This document shows positions 24,991-39,602 of a stretch of 64,000 nucleotides of DNA, one piece after another; position 1 is the stretch's first letter; every line of letters begins with the position of its first letter. The DNA is from Agarophyton chilense. Lineage: Eukaryota > Rhodophyta > Florideophyceae > Gracilariales > Gracilariaceae. The position numbers and the translations under genes are program-made. The notes beneath the pieces were generated by a model. The model saw only the letters and a program-made list of their open reading frames with translations, did not search any database and was not told the DNA's origin. The stretch covers positions 62,001 through 126,000 of the forward strand of contig JARGXX010000109.1 in the NCBI GenBank assembly GCA_030374765.1, in the 5' to 3' direction.

Positions 24991-27900
24991 CGATACCCAG
25001 AACCTTGAAGGTGGAGGAGAACACGTCACAACCAGTTCCGGTTTGTCATATGAAGTACAAAAACTATAAACTACGTGCTTCAATGTGTTTCACCGATCGC
25101 CTGGCGGTTCCGGTCACCTGCGTGTTGGATACGGGGGCCGGCCCAAACGGCCTGAACTCCCGCGTCATACCTGAGGCGGTACTTCAGAACTTGAGCCGAC
25201 CTCCCGACAACAACCCGCTGGTGGATGCAAATGAGCGCCCATTAAACCTTCGAGTTATGCTCCCAACTGTGATGCAGCTCGGACACCTCAAGGTAAGACT
25301 GAAATTCGTTGTTGTCGACCGTTTACCAACAGACTGCCTACTAGGTACGAACTTCATTGCCAGACTTGCCAAAGCATTCCTTTCTGGTTCCCGTACCGTC
25401 GCCCTACGTCACGGGGGACGAATTGCCATTTTAGGTAATACGGAAACCAAACGGGGATGGTTCGTCAAACCGAAGAAGACGATATCCACCGAAACGGTCT
25501 CCAACAAAGTGCACCTTACCAAACAGGTTGTTATCACGCCAATGCACCAAATATTGGTACCGGTGTCGTGTGGGACCCCCGGGCTGGTCATACTACAAAA
25601 CCATCCGAGGTTAGCACATCGACACCTCACCTTGATGGCCAACGGGATTGTCGACAACATCCCAAATCAACCCTTTAAGGTATGTCTCAGCAACTTCAGC
25701 AGTCACTACGTGAAGTTACCGAAAATACCAATGTTGGCATCGCACTACCGGTACCACAAGGGGTCTTCACCGTAGCTCACACTGATCTCGGCGAGGTCAC
25801 CTTCGATAAGGAAGGGGGGTGCGCAAATGCCTCCACAACCACGAAGGTATCGATAAACATCAACTTGGAATCAAAGCTAACCGATAAGGTATCGGTAGAC
25901 AAAGAAGAAGAACCTGACCCTGAGAGGCAATGGCAAGATACAGTCCAGATCGGTGAAGAAAACGGCGAACTACGGAGCCGTATTCTCGACCTTCTGGAGG
26001 AGTTCGAAACCATGTGGTCAGGCCATCTGGGCCAAATTAAGGCCACACAGCATCGCATCGAGCTCCTCCCTGACTCGAAGCCGATTTATCAGCAACCAGA
26101 CCGTGCAGGTCCGAAGACGAGAGAGATAGAACTCAAAGAAGTGGAGCGAATGATCCAAGAAGGTGTAATTGAACCAGCCAACTCAGATTGGGCTAGTCCC
26201 GTGGTTCTGGTTAAAAAAAAGGGGATAACTGTATGAGGTTTTTTGTGGACTACAGGAGGCTCAATAGAGTGACCATCAGGTATTCGTACCCGATACCTAG
26301 AATGGATGAGTGCATCGACTCCTTGGGAGATGCGCAGATATTTACCACGTTGGATGCCAATTGTGGTTATTGGCAGGTACCCGTAGGTGAGAAAGATCGA
26401 GACAAAACGACCTTCACGTGCCATGCAGGTTTGTTTCGCCTCACGCGGATGCCATTCGGGTTGCGCAATGCTCCAGCCACCTTTCAAAGGGCGCTAGACA
26501 TCATCCTTTCGAAGGTTAAGTGGACAACCGCCTTGGAATACATCGATGATGTAATCATCTACTACAGATCGGTAGAAGAGCATTTTGCTCACGTGCGCAC
26601 CGTACTGACCCTCCTAGCTGAGGCGGGGGTGACGCTGAAGCTACGCGAATGCGTCTTCTTTACCGGAACGGTTGAATACCTGGGCCACATCATAGGCCCT
26701 GGTACCCTAGAGGTTGCGCCGAGCAACATTAGAGCCGTACAGGAGGTCAAGGTGCCACGATCCCAGACAGACGTACGATTCTTTATAGGTTTATGCAACG
26801 TCTATTGTCGCTTCGTGAAGGGCTTCGCGAAAATAGCGGCTCCCCTCAACAAGAAGCTCCAGAAAGGTGAACCTGAACGATTTGAGAATCTATCGAACGA
26901 CGAAATGGATACCTTTGAGGAATTGAAACGAGCGCTGTTGTCGCCGCCAATCTTAGCGTTACCGAAAACAGGTCTACCGTACACGCTGGACACGGATGCA
27001 TCCCATGCCCAAATTGGTTGTTGTCTCATGCAGGAGCAGCATAACGGAGACAAATTACCTATAGGGTACTGGAGCCGCGCTATGAATGAGGCATAGCAGA
27101 ACTACACGGTAACCTAGAAGGACTATCTAGCAGTAGTGTGGAGCATTTTGATACTCCGTCCATACCTGTATGGTGAGCGCTTTACGTTGCGCACGGACCA
27201 CGACGCCTTAAGGTGGATCCTACGACTCGCAGATGCGTCTGGTAGACTTGCACGTTGGAGGTTGAGACTGTCGGAGTTTGAAAACGACGTACAGTACCGT
27301 CCAGGTATCAAGCACAACATAGCTGATGCTATGTCACGCTTAAACACCTCAGGGTTAGAGACAGAACCTGTGGACGATGACATACCTTGATTTTTGGTGT
27401 CATCAAACCAAAATGGTACCGGCGAACACCTAGAAGGATGTCGGGACTTACCTGAAGAAGGTGCTTTGCAGAACATCGACATGGCAACGCAGATACTGAC
27501 CCTAGAGGAAACGAACGTCATGCCAGTAACCCGAGAGGACTTCCTACGAGAACAGGCCCATGATGCGTCCTGCAGAACCCTGGCTGACCAAATTGGTTTC
27601 AAAGGATCAAAATTCGATGTGGACCACAATGGGTACATCGTGAAAAGGTCAACCTTGGATGGTAGCCTTCAAAAGGTGGTTCCGAAGGCGCTTCGCCTGA
27701 TATTCTTGTATCTCGCGCACTACCCGCGACTATCGGGACACTCCGGTGCCACCAGGATGTATAACACCTTGAGGCAACAGTTCTACTGGTCTCATATGGC
27801 CCATGATGTCTATACCTTTCTAGGTAAATGCGAATCCTGTGTTCGTACCCGCGGTGGTATTCGAAAGCATCGAAAGTACCTCAAGCTGTTTCCAGCAGCG

Positions 27901-28737
27901 GGTCCGCTGGAGTTTGTTGCGATAGACCTTCTAGGACCACTTCCCAAGACCAAGAATGGGTATCAGCACATTCTAGTGATCACCGACAGGTTCTCAAAGC
28001 TCACGAGAGCGATACATATAAAGGATACGAAGTCAACAACGCTGGCGATCGCGTTCCTCAACAATTGGGTCTACTCGTACGGTGCACCACTGTACCTACT
28101 TACCGATATGGTTCAAACTTGGCATCGAAGTTCTTCGAAGCAGTCTGTAACCTCTTGGGTATCAAGCACTATTTCACTACTGCCTACCACCCGCAGACGA
28201 ACGGACAGGTCGAGCGCTTTAAGCACACATTGGTATCAAGGCTACGACACTATACGGAAGAGCACCAAACTGGGTGGGATGAGCTGGTGCAACCGCTTAC
28301 CTACTCCTATAACCTTCAGGTACACCGGTCAACGCAGACCACTCCCTTCGATTTGGTTCTTTCGCGACACCCCCCAGGTGTTGTAGTGCAGGGAGATCAT
28401 ACCACCAGCACTGCAGCTGGCGCACTGACCCCTGCCCAGGTCCAGCGAAATACCCTTGTGAAGTTGAGGAGGGCTCTCAAACATGCAGAGAGCCGCCTCA
28501 TTGCAGCCCAGAAGCCGTACAAGGCCGACTACGACCGTAGGGTAGCCAAAGTGGTCTCTGTATCTTCGGGACAGTATGTCTACAAAGACAACCCACCCTC
28601 AGGTAAAAGACCACGACCGGGTGATGAAGTGGACGATGAAGCTATTGATAGAGATATCAATTCGAAGCTTCTACCCAATTCATTGGGACCTTGTAAGGTA
28701 TTGAACGCACCAGACCACACCGTTACGGTTGCGTCAT
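24858..28737 (+). pseudogene. pol: pol of element C, left part: protease, RT, RNase H, integrase
   Basis: The aspartic protease motif is intact here (LDTGAGPNG near 25126). A frameshift near 25700 and another at an A8 run (26213-26220) precede reverse transcriptase, which keeps FFVDYRRLN, YPIPRMDEC, TTLDANCGYW and YIDDVIIYY, so both catalytic Asp sites remain. RNase H begins at LDTDASHAQIG (near 26988), is interrupted by TAGs at 27094 and 27115, and continues as TLRTDHDALRW. Integrase shows a His-His-Cys-Cys finger (H...GHSGATRMY...C..C, near 27720-27840) and a DDE core (FVAIDLLGPLP, LLTD, and NGQVERF after a frameshift near 28110). The frame ends abruptly after HTVTV, where the nested transposon begins at 28738. 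Confidence 0.9.
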
Positions 28738-28754
28738 TGTTCTCGGAATGCTAG
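28738..28754 (+). repeat. Left TIR of the nested transposon
   Basis: TGTTCTCGGAATGCTAG; its reverse complement is at 39101-39117 with one change. Further CTAG-containing motifs follow near 28859, 28882, 28905 and 28923. Confidence 0.8.
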
Positions 28755-29041
28755 TTCAGTGGTCAAAAAAGGACGAATTGAAATGACCGAAAAACCCGTG
28801 AATTTATCCAAATTTGGAGGTGTTCATTTCCGAAAATATTTTCATTTGTTCATTAGTGCTAGTTTGTATGGGAAGGAAAACTAGCACATATCTGCAGTTT
28901 TTCTAGTTTTGATGGAGGTAAAACTAGCGTGAATCTTTCTGTCGCCGCAGTTTAAAGGTAAAAGTAGAGAAGTGGTGCAGGAGCAGATTCAATCTTTGTG
29001 CGCTCTAGAATGACAGATTAGTACAAACAACCGGTCCCAAA

Positions 29042-32000
29042 ATGGACCTCAAAATAGAAATTGAACATTTAATACCATCCATATCAATCGCAATAGAATC
29101 GCAGCCCGACCTGGCAGACCTCACGTGCCTTGCATTCTATATTATTCTCCACCGCCCTCCCCTGTCACGTGCCCTGTGTGCGCCATACTCTCTCTCCGTC
29201 TACGCCCCCTACCAACTTCTTTCCCACCACCTCTCCTCCACCCACCAGCGGCACCAGAGAAGGTGCCCTCATCGCCTCTCCGCCAACAAGCGCTTCCTCT
29301 CCCCTGGCGGAAATGAACCCAACTTCCCCCCCCGCACAAAACGCCACAAGTCCACCTCACAACTCCCCCCTCATCCTCCTCCCTCACATCGCCCTTCCGA
29401 CAACGTCCCTCTCGCACACCATGACTCCTATCTCCAAGACCAGCTCTCTCTCTCCCTCCACACCGAGGACGCCATCCACGTCGCCACTGCCCCTCTCGGT
29501 TCCCCCTCCTCTCTCGCTCTCTCCCCCTCCCTCCTTCCACTCCCCCCCTCGACAACCCCCACCTGTAGAAAATGGTCCTCTACATCTCTTCCATCGCCTC
29601 CAAGCTTGGACAACGAAAGGCTGACGAACTCATCACTCTCCTTAATGATCCCCACTTCTCCGAATCAACATTCCAGAACTCAGTCTCCTCCGCAAAGCAA
29701 TGCCTCGAGCTCCAGGCAGACCTCTTCCACCAGAGAATCAGGTCCATTGGTTTCGCCCCCTCCACCATCTTCGATCCCCACAAACGCTTCTCCGCAACCC
29801 TCTTCCAGAAAGACGCAATCCATGTCCTCAAACAACAGCTCGCCCTCGCCCACTTTAAGAACACCTTTTTCCACCCCATCTCCCAAACATCCGCCTCCGG
29901 CTCCCCCGCCTTCGCACACCCCATGGCAGCCACCCTCGGCTCAAAAGTCGTCCCCGCGCTCAAGACCGCCATCATGCAGTCCACAAAAGATAACATCGTC
30001 TGGCATCTCCCTCACTCCACCGGTATCGACTCCTTCATCGGCCTCGTCTAAATCTACTCCGACAAGTCCTCTACCTCTCTCAAATCTTCTTCCATCACCT
30101 CCTATCCCCTCCACATCACCCTTCTCAACTTCTCCGACTCCTTTCGGCGCAAATACATCTCCGACAATCTCACACTCCTCGGCTATCTTCCCACCTCCTT
30201 CACCGCAATCAATCCTTCTCCAGATGCAGATATCATCACTCATTCCTCCTCCATCCCCCGCCAAACAAAAATGGAACTCATACAGCAGACCATCTCCTCC
30301 CTCCTTCAACCTCTCTTCTCTTCCGCCCTCCCCGGTTTCACCTTCCGCGACGCAGACGGCGTTCTTCGTCAATGCCACCCCATCATCGCCAGCTACTGCG
30401 CAGACATTCCTGGGGCAAAGGATATTCTCGCCATCTCCCACGGCACCCGCCCCCAGCACCCCTGCCACAGATGCTCTGTCCCTCGCTCACAACTCCACCA
30501 ACGCACTCACGCCCATCCCCCTCGATCTCTTCCACTCACCCTTGTAGCCCGCAACAAACACTTCTCCCTCCTCAAGGACTCCGAAGCAGCTCTCCTCGCC
30601 CGCAAGCCAAGAGTCTCGCGCAACTTCAAGGAACAAGCTCTCCAAGCACTCCACTCCCTCTCCCTCGCAAAATACCCCTCCCTCTTGGAGTCTTACCCCC
30701 TTTTCAACATCACCCCCCTCCTCACCCCATACAACATCTTCCCCTTCGAAACCCTCCAAAACTTCCACCTCGGCGTTTCCAAACTCATCAAGCTCGCCGC
30801 CATCGAACGTCTCAGATCAGAACACCTCTTCACCACCATCAGCTCCACAAACTCCCGCCGTTCCTTCCACTCCGTCCGCACCTCCATCCTCAAGCACTCC
30901 AACTTCATCCTCACCGCCATCGAAAATCATTCCCCAGCTACCGGCCTCCACATCGACTTCTCTACTTCCGAAAGCGGACAGTCCCTCAACGGCTTCTTCA
31001 CAACTAACGGCGTCCGCGGCATGCTAGAAGCAAAAGACTACCGCGCCCTCGACATGGTCTTCCCCTTCATCGGCGCCTTCTTCGACCGCTGCTGTGACGA
31101 AGCCAATTCCGCTCCCATCACAACCGTCTTCTCCAAGTACACAGACCTCCTCCTCACCTCCATGTGCTACAACTCCGTCCCCGAATAGACCACTTCTCGT
31201 CTTGCCAAACTCGCCTCCCAAATCCATTCCTTCAAGCACAGAGCTGTCGATGTTCTGGGTCCATACCATACCTCCAACCTCGGCACCCTCAAATTCCACC
31301 TCCTCGATCACATCGTAGACGACATTCGACGCTTTGGGGGTCTCCACTTCAACGATGCAGGCATCTTCGAACAAGCCCATACCCTCTTCAAAGCACATTA
31401 CTCCCGAACCTCCAAGCGCAGACCCACCGCGCACAACGAAACCATCCGTGCCATCGAACGCTCCGATGCCGTCAACAATTGGATTTCTCTCTCCGCTAAT
31501 CCTTCCGTCACCTCATCCTCCCATGCCCCTCCTCCTCCCTTCCAAGCCCGCAAACCAGGTTTCGTCCGTGATGGCAAGCACACCTCCTTTTCCGATCTCA
31601 TCACCGCTCACAAATTCCTTCAAGCAAACCCCCACTCAACAATCTCTTCCCTTCAGGACCTCTTCTCCTCAGACACTATCGCCATCATCTCACAGATTGG
31701 AACCCTCGCACTCCCCTCCTTCGTCACATTTACACTCGAAACACTAGCTCTCAACCAGGACTCTCCCACTCTCCGCCAAACCCGTCTCACATTCGTCAAT
31801 TCCGCATACGTCGTCGGCGGCTTCACCCCAACCCTAGACGACTACATCGCCGATCGAAACGAGCTCGCCGTCAAAGATCCCCCTCTCCCACTCATTCAAC
31901 GTATCTTCGCTGCTCCCTCCTTCGGTCCCTCTAAAACCCCAAAGTTCTCCCACATCCTCGTTGCCGGTTCCAGCTTCTCCAACCCCACTCCCACCGCCTG

Positions 32001-32430
32001 GGTCTGCAAGCTCAACTCTCTTCTTCGCTTCACCACCCCTTCTTCCCCTTCCACTCATGACGAGTTCGCCTTCGTTCAGTTCCTCGAACTCGTTCCACCC
32101 CAGGATCAAGTCGATGTCTCTCTCAATTGCATCTGCCTCCGATGGGCAACAGACGACGAACAAAACCACACCGCAAACCCCCTTCCTATCTCAAACACTT
32201 CCAACTCCGACAACGTCTCCCCCTGGTTCGGCCTCGTACCATCCTCTTCCATTCTCGGCCCCGTTCATGTACTTCGCCAAAACTACCCCGCACCCCCCTT
32301 CACCCCTCGATTGCACTGGCGCTTCCATCGATTTTACCTCAACAGATTCTACCGAGACCCAACTGCCAAGCCCTACTTCTCCAACACCAACCGCTGGTGG
32401 CACAACACCACCACTGGGTGGCACCCATAA
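29042..32430 (+). pseudogene. Plavaka-like transposase (RNase H-fold, CACTA/KDZ relatives), degenerate
   Basis: From 29572 one frame runs to a TAA at 32430, interrupted by TAA at 30049-30051 and TAG at 31186-31188. Signatures in order: an N-terminal-type helix ELITLLNDPHFSES; IYSDKSS followed by YPLHITLLNFSDSFRRKY and LTLLGYLPTS, which is the LYSDKT...YPVYLTIGNIPK..RRK...LLGYLPT block of Plavaka transposases; an ADIPGAKDILAIS segment with a CHRC zinc finger near 30466-30477; ITPLLTPYNIFPFETLQNFHLGV; and KFHLLDHIVDDIRRFGG near the end. Upstream, a CPVC and a downstream H....H suggest an N-terminal C2H2 finger broken by a frameshift near 29190. The coding strand is very rich in C and T. Family assignment is from remembered motifs. 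Confidence 0.75.
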
Positions 32431-32539
32431 TAATACCTCCCAAGGCACATGATCCAATAAAATAGTCACTGCTGCTTTTCTTCCATAGCCGACCCCCATC
32501 TTGCTCCACCTCCTTACCCCCTTATCCCCCCGTACCTTA

Positions 32540-33531
32540 TCACTCTCCCACTCCTTGCCTACTCCCCAACGCTAAGCGCTTGAACCGTGGTTCTTCTGGT
32601 CCACATGACGCTATATAGCAATCTAACACCGCTCCAAGTCTTTTCGTGAGATTCTCCATGAAAAACTCCTCCCTTATCGCCAGATAGATTTTCTCTCTCG
32701 ACGGTATCCATAACCCAACCGTCGCGATTCTCTCCTTATTCCCACTCACATCTCTACGATTCCCTCCACAGAATTCATCATTCTAAAACTCCTCAGCATA
32801 CTCATCCTTCACCATGTTCCAGGCAACCCTCAATATGTCCTCAACGCCCCCGCGATTAGACCACTACTGGGTCCACCTATTCTACCATCCCCACCACGGC
32901 TACTCTCTATTCTCCGTTTCTGTATCTCATCATCACCGTCCTCTTCCCTCATACCCTTTAACGATGCCCCTGCTTCTTCAACGCCTCTGAGGCGGGATCC
33001 ACGTTCTCCGATCATTCTCTCTCCCTCCTTACGCCACTTCGTCCTCTCATTCGGAATCTCTTCACCTCCTTCAGGTGCAGAGCATGGATTTACCGGCTCC
33101 ACATCAGCTGAAGACGTGAGTACAGCACTTAGAGTCCGCTCGGGTGCATCCCCTCTCCTTGTCCTCCCTGGAGCTCTGCTCGCCCTCCCCTGCAATCCAC
33201 TTCTAGGTACACGCGTGCGGTTGCTTCACACGCCATCCCGTTTTCCATCGCCGCTCCGCACCATCTCTCCCGTAGGCGACGTGATTTGCTCCGCACTCTC
33301 CTCCGTCACCGTCTCCTTTGCGCGAACAGCCTTTCCTTTGCCCCCACTCGCCTCTCCTTCCCCACCATCTTGCCTTGATCTACCTCTCAGGCGCACGCCT
33401 CCCTTCTCTCCACTCGCGCCCTGGAGCCTACGCCCCTTGTCCCTTCCGCCCTCCGCATCCCCTCCATGCCGCCGTGATTTTGTACGGCGCCCGCTAGTGT
33501 TCTCGCTTCTCGATTTGCGCTTCGGAGCCAT
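32540..33531 (-). pseudogene. Basic low-complexity ORF of the nested transposon
   Basis: On the minus strand the frame from the ATG at 33531 begins MAPKRKSRSENTSGRRTKSRR and stays rich in Arg, Lys, Gly and Glu to a TAG at 33226-33228. It then continues in the same frame from 33195 to 32830. A third piece in another frame, 32749-32540 (IATVGLWIPSREKIYLAIREEFF), may be its C-terminal end. The basic start suggests a nuclear or DNA-binding protein. No domain was recognised. It diverges from the cargo gene that begins at 33914. Confidence 0.4.
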
Positions 33532-33913
33532 GGTTGAAGAGAGAGAGAGAGCGATCGTGGTATGGTCTTCCACGCGTTGCAATGCGATGGATGGGAGAGA
33601 AGCTTCGAAACATTCTGCTTCCAAAAAATATACCTCCACCGTTTTCGTGTTCTCAGAAAACCCCCAAACTTTTCAGATATTTTAAATATGCGCTCGAACG
33701 CACCAGATATTGGAAAAGTATTCTCCTTCGGTGTACATGACTTTCCTTTAGCATATGTACTACGTCACGCTTTGACGTTATATGTAGCGACAAACATAGT
33801 AAAAGCCCACAATATCTGGTACACTACAATGAAGTAAAGTAACAAAAGCGATGCACTTTTAATCGATTACTATGACTGGCGTGTTATTCATACTCCAGAT
33901 ATACTCGGTTCAA
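33532..33913. promoter_or_regulatory. Divergent intergenic region of the nested transposon
   Basis: This AT-richer 382-bp gap separates the minus-strand ORF starting at 33531 from the plus-strand cargo gene starting at 33914. It is the natural place for a shared promoter. No specific element was identified. Confidence 0.3.
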
Positions 33914-36900
33914 ATGATGACTCGAGTCAAAGCGAAAGCGAGGGGTACTCCGCGGGGTACTCCACGCGCCACTCCGCGAAAAGCTACATCGGGAAACAAT
34001 CTGGCTGGTGGGGATAGGGTGGCGTTGTTCCTGGCGGATGGGACAGGGTAGAAGAAGGGTACTATGGTTGGCACTGCGGAGTTGAGAGGTGTTGGGGGCA
34101 GTGGAGCGGCCGGGAAGGCGCTTTGCAGAGCGATGCATGGCCATTCGTTGCGCGAGTCTGCGAAGCAGGGAGAGGACTTGGTGGCCATCTGGAGGACTGA
34201 AATTAAGGAGGGGATCAACTCCAAGTATCCGTACTCCTTCAAGGGAGCAGAGGAGCCGCCGGAGTTGCTGAAGTATATGGTGTGGGCAGGTATATACGCA
34301 TGGGATACCTCGATGATGACACGCGTGTCCTCTGTGCTGACTCCAGGGCCTCCTCGGCCGGAGACTCCCAAAAGCGCGACCCCCTCGAAGGAGTCTGCTA
34401 CGCCTTTGAGGGGGAAGACGGCACAGCCAACAACAGTGCCGCCGGCCATGAAGCAACCCATCAAGCCGAAAAAGAGGGTGACGATAGTGGATGATTCTGA
34501 TGAAGATGTTGTGGAGGTGGGGTCAGCGGTGAATGTACGCGGGGATTCGCACACCGGTCCCGAGTTGGAGTTGTTCGATGACGGCGTTGCCGTTCCTTCG
34601 CAGGAAGTGGATAGGACTCTCGTGGAAAAGAAGATCTCTGTTTCAGACTATGACCAGTGCCGCTTGATTGTGGACAAAGATGACATACAAATCCCCGAGA
34701 AGACTGTCAGAAGTGTGAATGCAGAACACAAGGCGGCGACGATGGCAAAGTGCAAAACGTTTGGCTGGCTTGCGTCGGCAGGGTCGATTGCTGTTGCCAT
34801 CGTCGGGGGAATGGAATTAGATTTCAGTGAAATTGTTCACAATGGGAGGGTAGTGGTGCCTGTCATACTCATTGACGGTCATCACCGCGTCTTGGTTCTG
34901 CGAGATCTGAAGAATGATCCCTCTGAAGGGAGAAAGTGGTTGGAAATTGTGCGGTCTCTTGATTTCGTTCTTTGGAGACGCAAGGACCGGAAGCCTTTAT
35001 CGCTGAACGAAGTGCTCGGTCTTGGTAATGTACTCAATGAAATGAGTTCAAATGTGTTGAAGATGAGTTTCGCCGACAAGGTTCATTCGACAGTGTCCTT
35101 CATTTGCAACTTGATTGACGATAGGAGAACCAAGTTGGCTGACCTTACTCCGACATGGATAGCTGGGGCGCTGAAGACGAGCGAAGCTATAGGAATCTAC
35201 AGCTTGCGCCACTTGAATCGCTATGCGACTCTTGGGTTGAAATTCGTCAGGAGCGAAGGTCTCCTGGAGTTTTTTGAGAACGTATGAAAGGAGAGTCCAG
35301 TGCTAACGCTTGCGCATGTGTCGGGTGACTTGTTGTTAGGACTCGAAGACGAAATATTCCGTTTCGCAATCCGTCGTTGGCAGCTACATGTGAGGGTGAG
35401 GATGGGTTCTACGGGGAATATGGGACGTTTCCAGTAGACGCGAAAGCAGTTCTTCCAATGCGCCATAGGAATGTTCCAACTATGCGAAAGGGCGGGAAAG
35501 GAGAAGGGTCTGACGGCGGGGAAGGTTCTAGACAGCACAATTGTGATGGGAAAGAACGAGGTGTCTTTAAGGGAGTACCTTTGCATGCAAACGGCGAAGG
35601 TGGAGCTCAGTGGTCCGAAGCGGTTGTGGCCGGGGTTGGTGTCGAAGAGGATGAAAATCGCACAAAGACGGATTGAAGGCGGTCTGAAAGTGAGTCTGGC
35701 GTCCCCGATTGCGGAGAAGGATGTGGTGGAGGTGCCACCTTCTGTGAATGTTCCTTCGTCTAGTGCTGGGGAGTCTGTACCACACCAGGAAACAGTGGTT
35801 CCCAGACGCATCACACGAACTAGAAAAGGTACTGAGCGCGGGCTGGATGCTGCGGGTGAGAGGGTGATGGAACCTAGACAGAGAAAGGGGAAGAGAAAGG
35901 CTGTGGTCATTAGTGATGATGAACGCGAGTATGAACAGCCTTTCAAGCGGAAGAGGAAGAGGAGAAAGACGGTGGGCACATCTGCGGCTCAAATACCGGC
36001 TGACGTGGTGGATGTGTTCAAGAAGATGAGCAGGAAAGAGCTGAAGCGCTTCTTGAAGGAACATGTACTCAATGTTTTCTCATCGAGTGAGGATGAACTG
36101 GGTGATGACGGGGGGCAGGTTGCATTTGTAGGGGACGAAGAGGAGGAAGGTGTGCAAATGCGTGGTTTCGAAGACAATAATACGGAAGGGTGTTCCGAAG
36201 GGGCTGAAGAGGGCGGGACCGTATGCGGGGGGGGTCGGGTATGTCGTGGGTGTACTTGGTGAATGCACTTCCGAGCGAGTGGCCGGCGGGTGAAAATGGA
36301 GTGAAGCATCAGCACCTCTGGATGCAGATGATTTACCTACGGAACAAGCACAGGGCGGAGTGCTTGAGGGTAGAAGACTTGAAAAGTGTGCACCATGCGG
36401 TTTATTGGCGTGCTGCTCATAACAGGCACAAGGAACTGGGTTCCACGAAAGAACCGGTTCTTGGGGTGATTCTACCGACGAAGGACCACCCTGTGAATGA
36501 AGAGCAGGCGATATGGATGGCAGCAATGGAGAGGGATGACTTGGCCCGCGAGTACTTCGCGACTAAGAGAAGTGAGCTGATGGAGAAAGGATTTTGTGTG
36601 CTGGAAGAGTTTGCCACGGACGAGGGGATGGCGGATGAGGCGAAGAAGAGGGAGGTAAACTTCGATGGGGATGTGACTGGGACTTTGCTAGAGTTCTTCC
36701 AGACGGATTTCTTGAACCAGCCGGACTTGACGATTGAAGGGAATAGAAAGAAATGGGACCCTATAATCAACGCTGGTGAGGAGAGAGACGCTGGAGATAG
36801 AATGAAGGGAGTTGGGCGGTACATTACGACGAAGGTGGGGATTGTGGATTCTGTGGAGGAGGACGAGAACAACGTTTTAAAGGTGAGGAAAAGGGCATTG

Positions 36901-37537
36901 TTACATGCGAGGTTTGGACAGATTGCGGCCGCTCTTCGGTTGTGCAACAACTGGTCGGGGAAGAAGAGGATGTATGCCCCTGAAACAGGGGGGCGAGTGC
37001 TGTGTACGGCGGAGGGCTGTCCAAGGCAGGTGTTACATACGGACTTTTGAGGACTGACCGATGCCGAGAAGAACGTCGGAGAGGTTCCAGGGTTCTTCAT
37101 GATGGCGTCGGGAGCGAGTTCGTTTATGCTTTGGGTTTGTGAGAGGTCACATAACATGTACGTGCCCGACGACAGGAGCTTGAAGCGGCTGTCTCGGACG
37201 ATGGTAGTGAGGAAGTTCAGGATTCCGCCGTACTCCATTTTTATTGGAAGAGGATATGTGTTTCATGCTGGAGCTGGACAAGCTACCGGACGCAGTGCAT
37301 AGGCAACCAGCATTTCGGCCTAATTTCGAAGAGGATGATTCCAACAAGGGTGATGATGAAGACGTCCAGGTAGATGAGGATGAGGAGTTGGATGAAGATT
37401 ATAAAATGGAAGTTGTTGAAAGTGGGGAAGAGGAGAATGAAGAAGAGGATGATGAACCTGGGATGGGTCTCAACTCGGCTAACACAGATGGAGACTATGA
37501 AGACGGCGGCATGATAATGGATGAAGACGACGACTAG
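33914..37537 (+). pseudogene. Large cargo protein with ParB/Srx-like motif and 2OG-Fe(II) oxygenase-like domain (broken)
   Basis: A chain of about 1,200 codons read in two frames. The ATG at 33914 starts a basic region with GTPR/ATPR repeats like an AT-hook or SPKK tail. In-frame stops occur at 34049, 35285 and 35435. Near 34870-34900 the string VILIDGHHRVLVLRDL resembles the DG.HR site of ParB/sulfiredoxin-fold domains. A Lys/Arg-rich tract lies near 35877-35970. At a G8 run (36227-36234) the frame shifts. The following 340 codons end in GCPRQVLHTDF (His 37036, Asp 37042), then a TGA at 37048, and a distal FHAGAG (His 37264). That HxD...H spacing, with IPPYSIFIGRGYVFHAG before the distal His, fits a double-stranded beta-helix 2-oxoglutarate/Fe(II) oxygenase. 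After another shift an acidic tail ends at 37537. The exact subfamily (TET/JBP, AlkB or other) is not settled. Confidence 0.6.
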
Positions 37538-37560
37538 ATAGTATCTGTTACCTATTGAAC

Positions 37561-37566
37561 AATAAA
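37561..37566 (+). terminator. Possible polyadenylation signal of the cargo gene
   Basis: AATAAA lies 24 bases after the stop at 37537, a usual place for a cleavage/polyadenylation hexamer. Confidence 0.45.
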
Positions 37567-37618
37567 GAGTATAATTTGAGGTAATATGTGGAGTAGTCCC
37601 CTTTTCTTGTAATAGTGA

Positions 37619-38447
37619 TCAGTCGTCTTTCAGTAGAAACTCCTGAACAACTGGATTGAAACGCGTGAGAGCAGCACTTGCTTTCAATTTCTCATAGTGA
37701 ATGACAACTGTCGAAGATATCAAGATTACGACATCCACTCTGTTACCAAGCAGTATAGGAACACCAGGGCCCTCAATGCGAGAGGTGGAGAAGGCGGTTG
37801 AAGAGAGTGCAGCGAAAGTGCATGCCGACAGCCTCATACCGAGTAGTCGGAAGGTTACAGCCGGACTGGATATGAATAAAGCCTGTTGAAAAGAGTGGGA
37901 GAGGGCGCCAAGCACGAGGTTCATAAAAGAGGTTCTCCGTGGTTCCGGGGTCATTGTGAACTTTGTGTTAAGATAGGACTCTTGAAAGAAGGATATAGAA
38001 ACAAGCTGGAGAAGATATGCCAAAGCGCCAACTGCGGCCCCTCCTGTGGAGAAGGCGATACAATTTGTCTTCACGTCTGATGAAAGGGTACCGCTGACTG
38101 GAATGAAGCGGTGAACGAGGAAAAGTATGGCGTTGAGGGGGATGAGTAGAGTAAGGAGTAGAGCCCCGAATTCCAGAAAGGCTCGTTTCTTCCAGGTATA
38201 TCGCTGGTTTGGATTGAACGGCGTAGTTTATAGAGACCCGTATAACGCGTTTATACACTGTACGCCTCCTTCGATTATGAGAATGTGTATCAGGCTTTGG
38301 ATAGAACACCTCAATAGCGTTATGAGAATGAACCGAAGGAGAGAGTTGAATCTGAATGGAAGCGTATATTGCAGAGCTGGGTCTATAACTCCGAAGAGTG
38401 TAGTTAGTGTGATTGTGAATGTTAAGGTCGATGTGAAGAGTGTTTGC
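37619..38447 (-). pseudogene. Polytopic membrane-protein ORF of the nested transposon
   Basis: On the minus strand one frame is open from 38447 to 37619 except for a TAA near 38230. It encodes several hydrophobic segments: LTFTITLTTLFGVI, LLRFILITLLRC, ALLLTLLIPLNAILFLV, AVGALAYLLQLVSISFF and VVILISSTVVIHY. These look like membrane helices. No ATG occurs at the 5' end (a TAG precedes it), so an upstream exon or frameshift is likely. It converges with the oxygenase-like gene, with about 80 bp between the stops. No family was recognised. Confidence 0.4.
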
Positions 38448-38629
38448 TAACTGAACATCTTAGTAAAGGCGTTCCGGTTTGCTAGTCTTCCTTGTACGGT
38501 GCACATAGGTAACGATATGATACCGCTCTTTGAACAGTTGTTTCAGAGTATCTGAAGGAGGTGGGAGAGGAGAGGGGGAGAGGGAAAGGGTCGCCGGTGA
38601 CGCCAGGGAGACGCGGGGAGCCGGCTGGG

Positions 38630-38869
38630 ATGAAGAAGGGGAAAGAGGAATGGAAAGGGGGAGGAGTTGGAGAGAGTCGGCTGAAAAAGAGGAGGGTTGG
38701 TAAGGATGTGGAGAAGAAGGGTGGGAATGTGTGTGTGGTGGGGCAGCCGGGTGTGAGGAACTTGAGCAGTGGGGAGGTGGACGAGGTTGAGAATGCGGTG
38801 GTGGACTTCTTCAACCTCAAATACCCTCCCGGTGGAACGCTGGAGCCTAGTAAGCAAAAGGGCCAGTAA
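38630..38869 (+). CDS. Small Lys/Gly-rich ORF near the right end of the nested transposon
   Basis: From an ATG at 38630 the frame encodes about 79 residues, first very basic (MKKGKEEWKGG, SRLKKRRVGKD) and then GEVDEVENAVVDFFNLKYPPGGTLEP. The opposite strand is open too, so coding is doubtful. It could be the 3' exon of a larger gene. Confidence 0.2.
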   Translation: MKKGKEEWKGGGVGESRLKKRRVGKDVEKKGGNVCVVGQPGVRNLSSGEVDEVENAVVDFFNLKYPPGGTLEPSKQKGQ

Positions 38870-39100
38870 GGAGGTAGAAGGTACTGACGACTGCCTTGGT
38901 ATGGATCTCCACCTAGAGCAGTCAAAAGTGACCAGTAAACTGCAAATGCAGATTAAACTGCATTAAGTGGTCAAAACACTAAGATGCATGGAGTTCTTAT
39001 TTCCAAAAAAAATTTTTTCAGGTGCCGAACTAGCGCAATCTGCAAAATTCTTAGATTTTTTGGCTTTTTATTTACAAACCTAGCTATCTAGCACACTTAT

Positions 39101-39117
39101 CTAGCATTCTGAGAACA
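39101..39117 (-). repeat. Right TIR of the nested transposon
   Basis: CTAGCATTCTGAGAACA, the inverted copy of 28738-28754. Subterminal CTAG motifs precede it near 39027, 39080 and 39088. Confidence 0.8.
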
Positions 39118-39124
39118 CAGACGT

Positions 39125-39602
39125 GAACAAGATGGAATACCGAATACGATATCAATTGACCGTATTACGGTAGCACCTGAAACGGTTCAACATCGCATTG
39201 AGGCAAGCACCTCAGCCCGAGAGCCCAGAGTTGTAGCTCTGTGCACTCGACCCTCGGAGGACCCCACCCCAATTGAGGTGAACGATGACCTTCAACGTGA
39301 TGATCCGGATTACAACCCTCTAACAGGGACGGAAATTGAACCTCAAACGGTAAATGCGGGAGCTCACGACCCGGCTCCCACACACGAAGCTCCCAACTCA
39401 GAACATATGAACCCTCGAGGTAGCGTTTTCCCGAAAGCTCAGGACCAAACCTCAGAGGAATTTCCCTTTGACCGTCAGGTTGGCTACACGCGAAACTATA
39501 ATGGTCTGAAGAACACCGTCAGGTGGTACGGGTGGGGCCCAGAAGGGGACACCCTCGAACCCCCAGCCGCAATACCCCCACACTTCCGTATCAGGTATTA
39601 GC
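39125..39602 (+). pseudogene. pol: pol of element C, right part: integrase C-terminus and chromodomain
   Basis: The frame resumes in the middle of the integrase C-terminal domain with DGIPNTISIDRITVAPE, exactly where the left part ended. It runs through a disordered linker to a divergent chromodomain, TVRWYGWGPEGDTLEPPAAIPPHFRIRY, before TAG at 39600-39602. Element B has VRWFGYTPEEDTLQEP at the same place. An RRRKE tail follows the stop. Confidence 0.88.

What the first reader, a model, noticed from the sequence alone, without database searches (positions are those of the whole stretch)
33914..37537. DNA transposon cargo gene with an oxygenase-like and a ParB-like motif
Seen: inside the TIR-bounded insert, one broken reading frame carries a basic start, a DGHHR motif, a basic nuclear-type tract, and an HTD...H pair with beta-strand-like flanks. 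Established: in fungi, TET/JBP-type 2-oxoglutarate oxygenases that modify 5-methylcytosine are found with KDZ transposons, relatives of the Plavaka/CACTA group. Inference: this element carried its own DNA- or chromatin-modifying enzyme, perhaps to avoid silencing. Combining a ParB/Srx-like motif with an oxygenase in one transposon protein would, to my knowledge, be undescribed.
Basis: partly seen in the sequence, partly recalled or inferred. Interest (0 to 1): 0.9.

Follow-up and report, generated by a model that had tools for sequence, protein, structure and literature searches.

The report
Giant transposon with own epigenetic enzymes
A large mobile DNA element, probably from a red seaweed, carries a protein joining a bacterial-style DNA-clamp domain to an oxygenase-like domain, and its intact copies also carry a DNA methylating enzyme fused to a histone-methylating type of domain, so it may manage its own DNA and chromatin marks.

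Summary
Window 28732-39123 is an internally deleted copy of an 18.8-kb Plavaka-type DNA transposon (2-bp target duplications in 7 of 7 copies read at both ends). The broken frame at 33914-37537 is a dead copy of a 1228-aa single-exon protein that is open elsewhere in the same genome. Its N-terminal half is predicted, on a homologue, with a ParB/sulfiredoxin fold. Its C-terminal part keeps HxD, distal His and Arg in 8 of 8 homologues spanning it, as in Fe(II)/2-oxoglutarate oxygenases, but no profile or fold search confirmed that fold. The window copy has lost what intact copies carry head-to-head with this gene: a DNA amino-methyltransferase (DPPY, adenine type) fused to a SET domain. 40 of 44 scored methyltransferase copies are so paired, and one of two copies read of a divergent family keeps the pair. 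Best reading: a transposon-borne module that marks its own DNA and chromatin; substrates are inferred. The host is probably a red alga (named relatives: Gracilaria domingensis).

The parts
28730..28731 (.). left copy of the 2-bp target site duplication (TG)
28732..39123 (.). whole insert: internally deleted copy of a Plavaka-type DNA transposon (intact copy C117 18,774 bp)
28732..28754 (+). left terminal inverted repeat, CGTC...
   Evidence: 20 of 23 identical to the right one
29246..32449 (+). broken transposase gene; Pfam Plavaka PF18759 on 30052-31185, E 2.9e-20
32543..33531 (-). remnants of two minus-strand ORFs of unknown function that are longer in intact copies; a block of about 1.6 kb is missing at 32845
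33906..33909 (.). deletion joint: about 4.4 kb missing here that in intact copies holds nearly all of the DNA methyltransferase-SET gene
33914..37537 (+). dead copy of the ParB-like/oxygenase-like protein gene (1228 aa in intact copy C117)
34649..35490 (+). ParB/sulfiredoxin-like part (limits approximate, carried over from the model of homologue P0001)
34874..34888 (+). DGHHR motif; D-G-x-H-R is invariant in the 4 sequences of A1 and the 6 of A2
35945..35965 (+). basic tract KRKRKRR, nuclear-localisation-like (by eye)
36589..37278 (+). oxygenase-like domain, its 3' part cut by the deletion at 37278
37036..37044 (+). HTD (HxD iron-ligand motif)
37129..37152 (+). LWVCERSH, resembles the LWVxPxSH/GSH segment of PhyH-type oxygenases
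37264..37266 (+). distal His of FHAG; the conserved RYH that follows in homologues is lost in this copy
38553..38553 (.). deletion joint: about 2.2 kb missing that in intact copies holds a ketopantoate-reductase-like gene
38552..38866 (+). rest of a small plus-strand ORF (143 aa in C117) of unknown function
39101..39123 (-). right terminal inverted repeat
39124..39125 (.). right copy of the 2-bp target site duplication (TG)

Best explanation
An 18.8-kb Plavaka-type DNA transposon carries, head-to-head, a DNA amino-methyltransferase fused to a SET domain and a protein that joins a ParB/sulfiredoxin-fold part to an Fe(II)/2OG-oxygenase-like part. Most likely the two form a self-encoded marking module: the methyltransferase puts a methyl on adenines of element DNA and the SET domain on histones; the ParB-like part docks on element DNA (as a nucleotide-gated clamp or as a reader of modified DNA) and brings the oxygenase to remove or convert a mark, so that the element stays expressed or mobile against host silencing. 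Shown: the genes, their domains by profile or fold (the oxygenase by conserved motifs only), their pairing and their presence in a divergent family. Inferred: all substrates, the direction of the effect, and that the two proteins work together.
Against: Oxygenase fold not confirmed: model pLDDT 37, no such PDB match, no Pfam, PHROG or NCBIfam oxygenase hit in 8 members, hhalign to a small PhyH set matched 18 columns only. Among young copies dN/dS is 0.83 for this gene and 0.78 for MTase-SET, near neutral. No 5mC mutation footprint, so no sign of the silencing it would resist. Family-2 copy C32 shows only a partial 24% methyltransferase match in another place, and no transposase was found near C32 or C92. 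Nothing was tested biochemically.
Confidence: 0.55

Rival explanations
1. The paired genes serve transposition itself rather than anti-silencing: methylation of the element ends gates the transposase or marks self DNA, and the ParB-like protein is an accessory DNA-binding factor that assembles the ends.
For: The ParB part resembles DNA-binding clamps; both genes travel with the transposase in a TIR/TSD-bounded unit. Control of transposition by adenine methylation is known in bacterial Tn10/IS10 (recalled, no call).
Against: Does not by itself call for a SET domain or for an oxygenase. No repeated methyltransferase target or ParB site at the ends was looked for.
Confidence: 0.2
2. One reading: a TET/JBP-like enzyme that oxidises 5-methylcytosine to escape silencing, as in fungal TET+ Plavaka elements.
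For: TET+ Plavaka elements exist in fungi (PMC12730594, passages); the HxD...H...R order fits any 2OG oxygenase.
Against: No Tet_JBP match in Pfam (E up to 1; up to 10 for 8 members). C-to-T rates per 1000: CG 7.9, CHG 5.2, CHH 6.2; CpG observed/expected 0.96 in the window, 0.81 in its element, 0.86 in C117. The sequence context LWVxPxSH is nearer PhyH.
Confidence: 0.08
3. The C-terminal part is not an oxygenase: a beta-rich domain whose conserved His, Asp and Arg serve another metal site or DNA binding.
For: No profile or fold support; PhyH-profile scores of the 8 domains rank 71, 9, 5, 1, 23, 17, 33 and 8 of 501 against shuffles, suggestive at most.
Against: Colinear GF-x-x-L opening, HxD, LWVxPxSH, GD-x-x-H and R; eight strands in the low-confidence model with HxD, His and Arg on or beside strands 2, 7 and 8.
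Confidence: 0.17

Closest known systems
TET/JBP-bearing Plavaka, KDZ and other fungal DNA transposons (PMC12730594; passages and Introduction read)
   Same: Plavaka-type transposase, 2-bp TSDs (fungal Plavaka 2 or 3 bp), an oxygenase-like cargo gene
   Different: no TET/JBP match; oxygenase-like part fused to a ParB-like part; a methyltransferase-SET gene beside it; termini CGTC..GACG, not TGT..ACA or CATCA..TGATG; host not a fungus by its relatives. The paper holds no mention of ParB or red algae.
N4CMT of bdelloid rotifers (PMC8885841; passages read)
   Same: permuted bacterial-type N6_N4_MTase (PF01555) joined to a eukaryotic chromatin domain
   Different: there a host gene with a chromodomain and SPPY; here transposon cargo with a SET domain and DPPY
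SET genes in HarbingerS and MuDR transposons (cited in PMC12730594; originals not read)
   Same: transposon-borne SET domain
   Different: here fused to a DNA methyltransferase
ParB/Noc CTPases, sulfiredoxin, SerK/SbnI, DndB-type DGQHR proteins
   Same: fold and D-G-x-H-R motif; TIGR03187 DGQHR E 6.8e-4 on P0001
   Different: TIGR03187 far below its cut-off (19.5 of 58.85 bits) and found in 1 of the 5 homologues scanned at E up to 0.1; joined to an oxygenase-like part in a eukaryotic transposon

Membership tests
Plavaka DNA transposons | Plavaka transposase | tested here: met
   PF18759 E 2.9e-20, 73.2 bits, cut-off 26.3
Plavaka DNA transposons | TIRs and 2- to 3-bp TSDs (per PMC12730594) | tested here: met
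   7 of 7 copies with both ends read, 2-bp TSD
PlavakaA and PlavakaB of fungi | termini TGT..ACA or CATCA..TGATG | tested here: not met
   CGTC..GACG; so not filed in either subgroup
ParB/sulfiredoxin fold superfamily | fold | tested here: met
ParB CTPases | CTP binding and hydrolysis | not testable with these tools
   needs protein
Fe(II)/2OG oxygenases | HxD...H and a later Arg | tested here: met
   8 of 8 homologues spanning the domain (P0009 has HND). Left out: P0003 and P0004 end before it, P0008 is truncated with QTD, the window copy is cut. In 15 decayed copies of the same genome: H 10 of 14, D 12 of 14, distal H 11 of 14, R 7 of 13
Fe(II)/2OG oxygenases | double-stranded beta-helix | tested here: inconclusive
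   model pLDDT 37, eight strands in the expected order but no PDB match
PhyH (PF05721) | profile match | tested here: inconclusive
   no hit in Pfam scans; faint colinear similarity
TET/JBP (Tet_JBP) | profile match | tested here: not met
   absent from Pfam hits at E up to 1 and up to 10 in 8 members
beta-class DNA amino-methyltransferases | PF01555 with catalytic motif before the AdoMet motif | tested here: met
   3.4e-18 and 7.2e-17; TDPPYN before DLFAGT in both
beta-class DNA amino-methyltransferases | adenine rather than cytosine as target | not testable with these tools
   DPPY and adenine-type nearest relatives suggest adenine; 4mC enzyme PvuII also matched
SET domain | profile match over Pfam cut-off | tested here: met
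   23.4 and 26.0 bits, cut-off 22.4
SET domain | classical NHSC motif (recalled) | tested here: not met
   reads NDPK and NDAQ, by eye; DYG is kept; activity therefore uncertain

The most novel reading that the evidence does not exclude
A eukaryotic transposon encodes a complete foreign-style DNA modification system: a writer (adenine methyltransferase joined to a histone-methylating SET domain), and a ParB-like clamp or reader that spreads on element DNA carrying its own oxygenase as eraser or converter. The element would keep a private epigenetic code that separates its DNA from the host's.
Probability: 0.3. Interest if true: 0.95.

Novelty: new variant of a known kind. Interest (0 to 1): 0.82.

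Why it matters
Transposons that carry chromatin or DNA-modifying genes are known (TET/JBP, SET), but the literature searches run here (open-licence PMC only) listed none with a ParB-like/oxygenase fusion or a DNA amino-methyltransferase-SET fusion. If active, it would show a mobile element bringing bacterial-type DNA methylation and a ParB-fold protein into eukaryotic chromatin, and would make it directly testable whether such elements escape silencing by marking themselves.

Tried and rejected

Assembly figures in PMC10388701 (passages) match no listed species exactly.

Full report
1. The observation. It carries four in-frame stops, a frameshift and a deletion of about 65 bp. Its first piece (34052-35284) has 102 matches in the same genome; 47, the window included, are nearly full length at 92% identity or more, and 10 of those 47 lie in an open frame of at least 1193 aa without a stop inside the match (candidates capped, so lower bounds). 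Copy C117 was read in full: one ORF of 1228 aa from the first ATG.

2. The element. Comparison with eight fetched family-1 copies shows that the window copy is internally deleted in up to four places; one of the eight, C105a, also lacks the last block. With both ends read in the window and six copies, 7 of 7 have a 2-bp target duplication and termini CGTC..GACG. The C117 element is 18,774 bp. In the window it sits in a frame that looks by eye like Ty3/gypsy pol (no profile search was run on the flank); leaving the insert out joins over 350 codons without a stop. The transposase piece at 30052-31185 matches Pfam Plavaka, E 2.9e-20. A 2025 paper on fungal elements (PMC12730594, passages and Introduction) gives 2- or 3-bp TSDs for Plavaka and places it near EnSpm/CACTA, not KDZ.

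3. The protein. Database searches gave P0001 and P0002 (about 1030 aa, unnamed public contigs), P0003 and P0004 (Gracilaria domingensis, N-terminal part only), and P0005 to P0009 for the C-terminal part, P0006 again from G. domingensis. A second family in the own genome (about 36% identical in the first piece; 37 to 38% over the protein; 57% in the C-terminal part) has an open frame of 1316 aa. D-G-x-H-R is invariant in all six aligned sequences.

5. Oxygenase-like part. In the eight homologues that span it, H158, D160, S196, H197, H231, R247 and H249 (P0007 numbering) are invariant. Dropped from that count: P0003 and P0004 (end earlier), P0008 (truncated, QTD) and the window copy (cut). In 15 decayed copies the residues are mostly kept: H 10 of 14, D 12 of 14, distal H 11 of 14, R 7 of 13, against a mean identity of 46%. 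The segment LWVCPxSH resembles LWVVPKSH and LWFIPGSH of PhyH proteins found through the own genome and the PDB. Against: no Pfam, PHROG or NCBIfam oxygenase hit in 8 members; no PDB sequence hit; model pLDDT 37.3 and no meaningful fold match; hhalign to six PhyH sequences aligned 18 columns only; PhyH-profile scores rank 71, 9, 5, 1, 23, 17, 33 and 8 of 501 against shuffles. The low-confidence model has eight strands with HxD, His and Arg on or beside the second, seventh and eighth, as in the canonical fold (the canonical order is recalled). I hold oxygenase as likely, not shown.

6. The neighbour that the window has lost. In C117 a minus-strand ORF of 1043 aa matches N6_N4_Mtase (E 3.4e-18) and SET (E 8.2e-5), both over the cut-offs. 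NCBIfam and PDB relatives are mainly adenine methylases. Of 44 scored copies (233 candidates), 13 have no stop inside, and 40 have a ParB/oxygenase copy head-to-head, 39 within 3.2 kb and one at 8.6 kb (positions typed). Family-2 copy C92 keeps a 35% identical methyltransferase-SET ORF in the same arrangement and a 39% identical ketopantoate-reductase-like ORF; family-2 copy C32 shows only a partial 24% match elsewhere. No Plavaka transposase was found in the 19 kb around either.

7. Mechanism. The simplest reading is a module that marks the element's own DNA and chromatin. The methyltransferase-SET fusion recalls the bdelloid N4CMT-chromodomain enzyme (PMC8885841, passages). Which mark is made, which is removed, and whether the effect is anti-silencing or control of transposition are inference. 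Results against: near-neutral dN/dS among young copies, no mutation footprint of 5mC, and an altered NHSC motif in the SET domain (by eye). Open frames kept across families that differ at over 60% of residues speak for long-term function.

8. Novelty. Ten searches of the open-licence PMC library listed no transposon with a ParB-like/oxygenase fusion or a methyltransferase-SET fusion; subscription papers and Repbase were not searched.

Noticed in passing
own genome, family 2 of the protein: C106:356256 of 362021, C22:1643743 of 1648664, C116:1840, C103:3296, C96:5223, C33:5716, C95:6258, C9:4781, C89:11684, C76:13001: Many near-identical family-2 copies lie close to contig ends, as if subtelomeric; some others (C31, C98, C92) do not, as far as known (contig lengths).
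   Followed up: no
own genome C21:639189-667037: Six family-2 matches in a row, 4.8 to 5.6 kb apart, near the end of the contig: a tandem array.
   Followed up: no
L012:5187-6008 (-) and L028:7653-8522 (-): Ketopantoate-reductase-like cargo gene in both families (39% identical; NCBIfam PRK06249 E 7e-4, ApbA_C 0.038 and 0.0061, all below cut-offs): an unexplained metabolic-type gene in the transposon.
   Followed up: partly
L027:3-2555 (-): ORF of 851 aa upstream of family-2 copy C92 with an OrsD zinc-finger match (PF12013, E 2.9e-7).
   Followed up: no
window 37619-38227 (-): Open frame of 202 aa, hydrophobic and membrane-protein-like by eye, no Pfam match.
   Followed up: partly
window flanks 27828-28731 and 39124-39601: The element is nested in a Ty3/gypsy-like pol frame, identified by eye.
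   Followed up: partly
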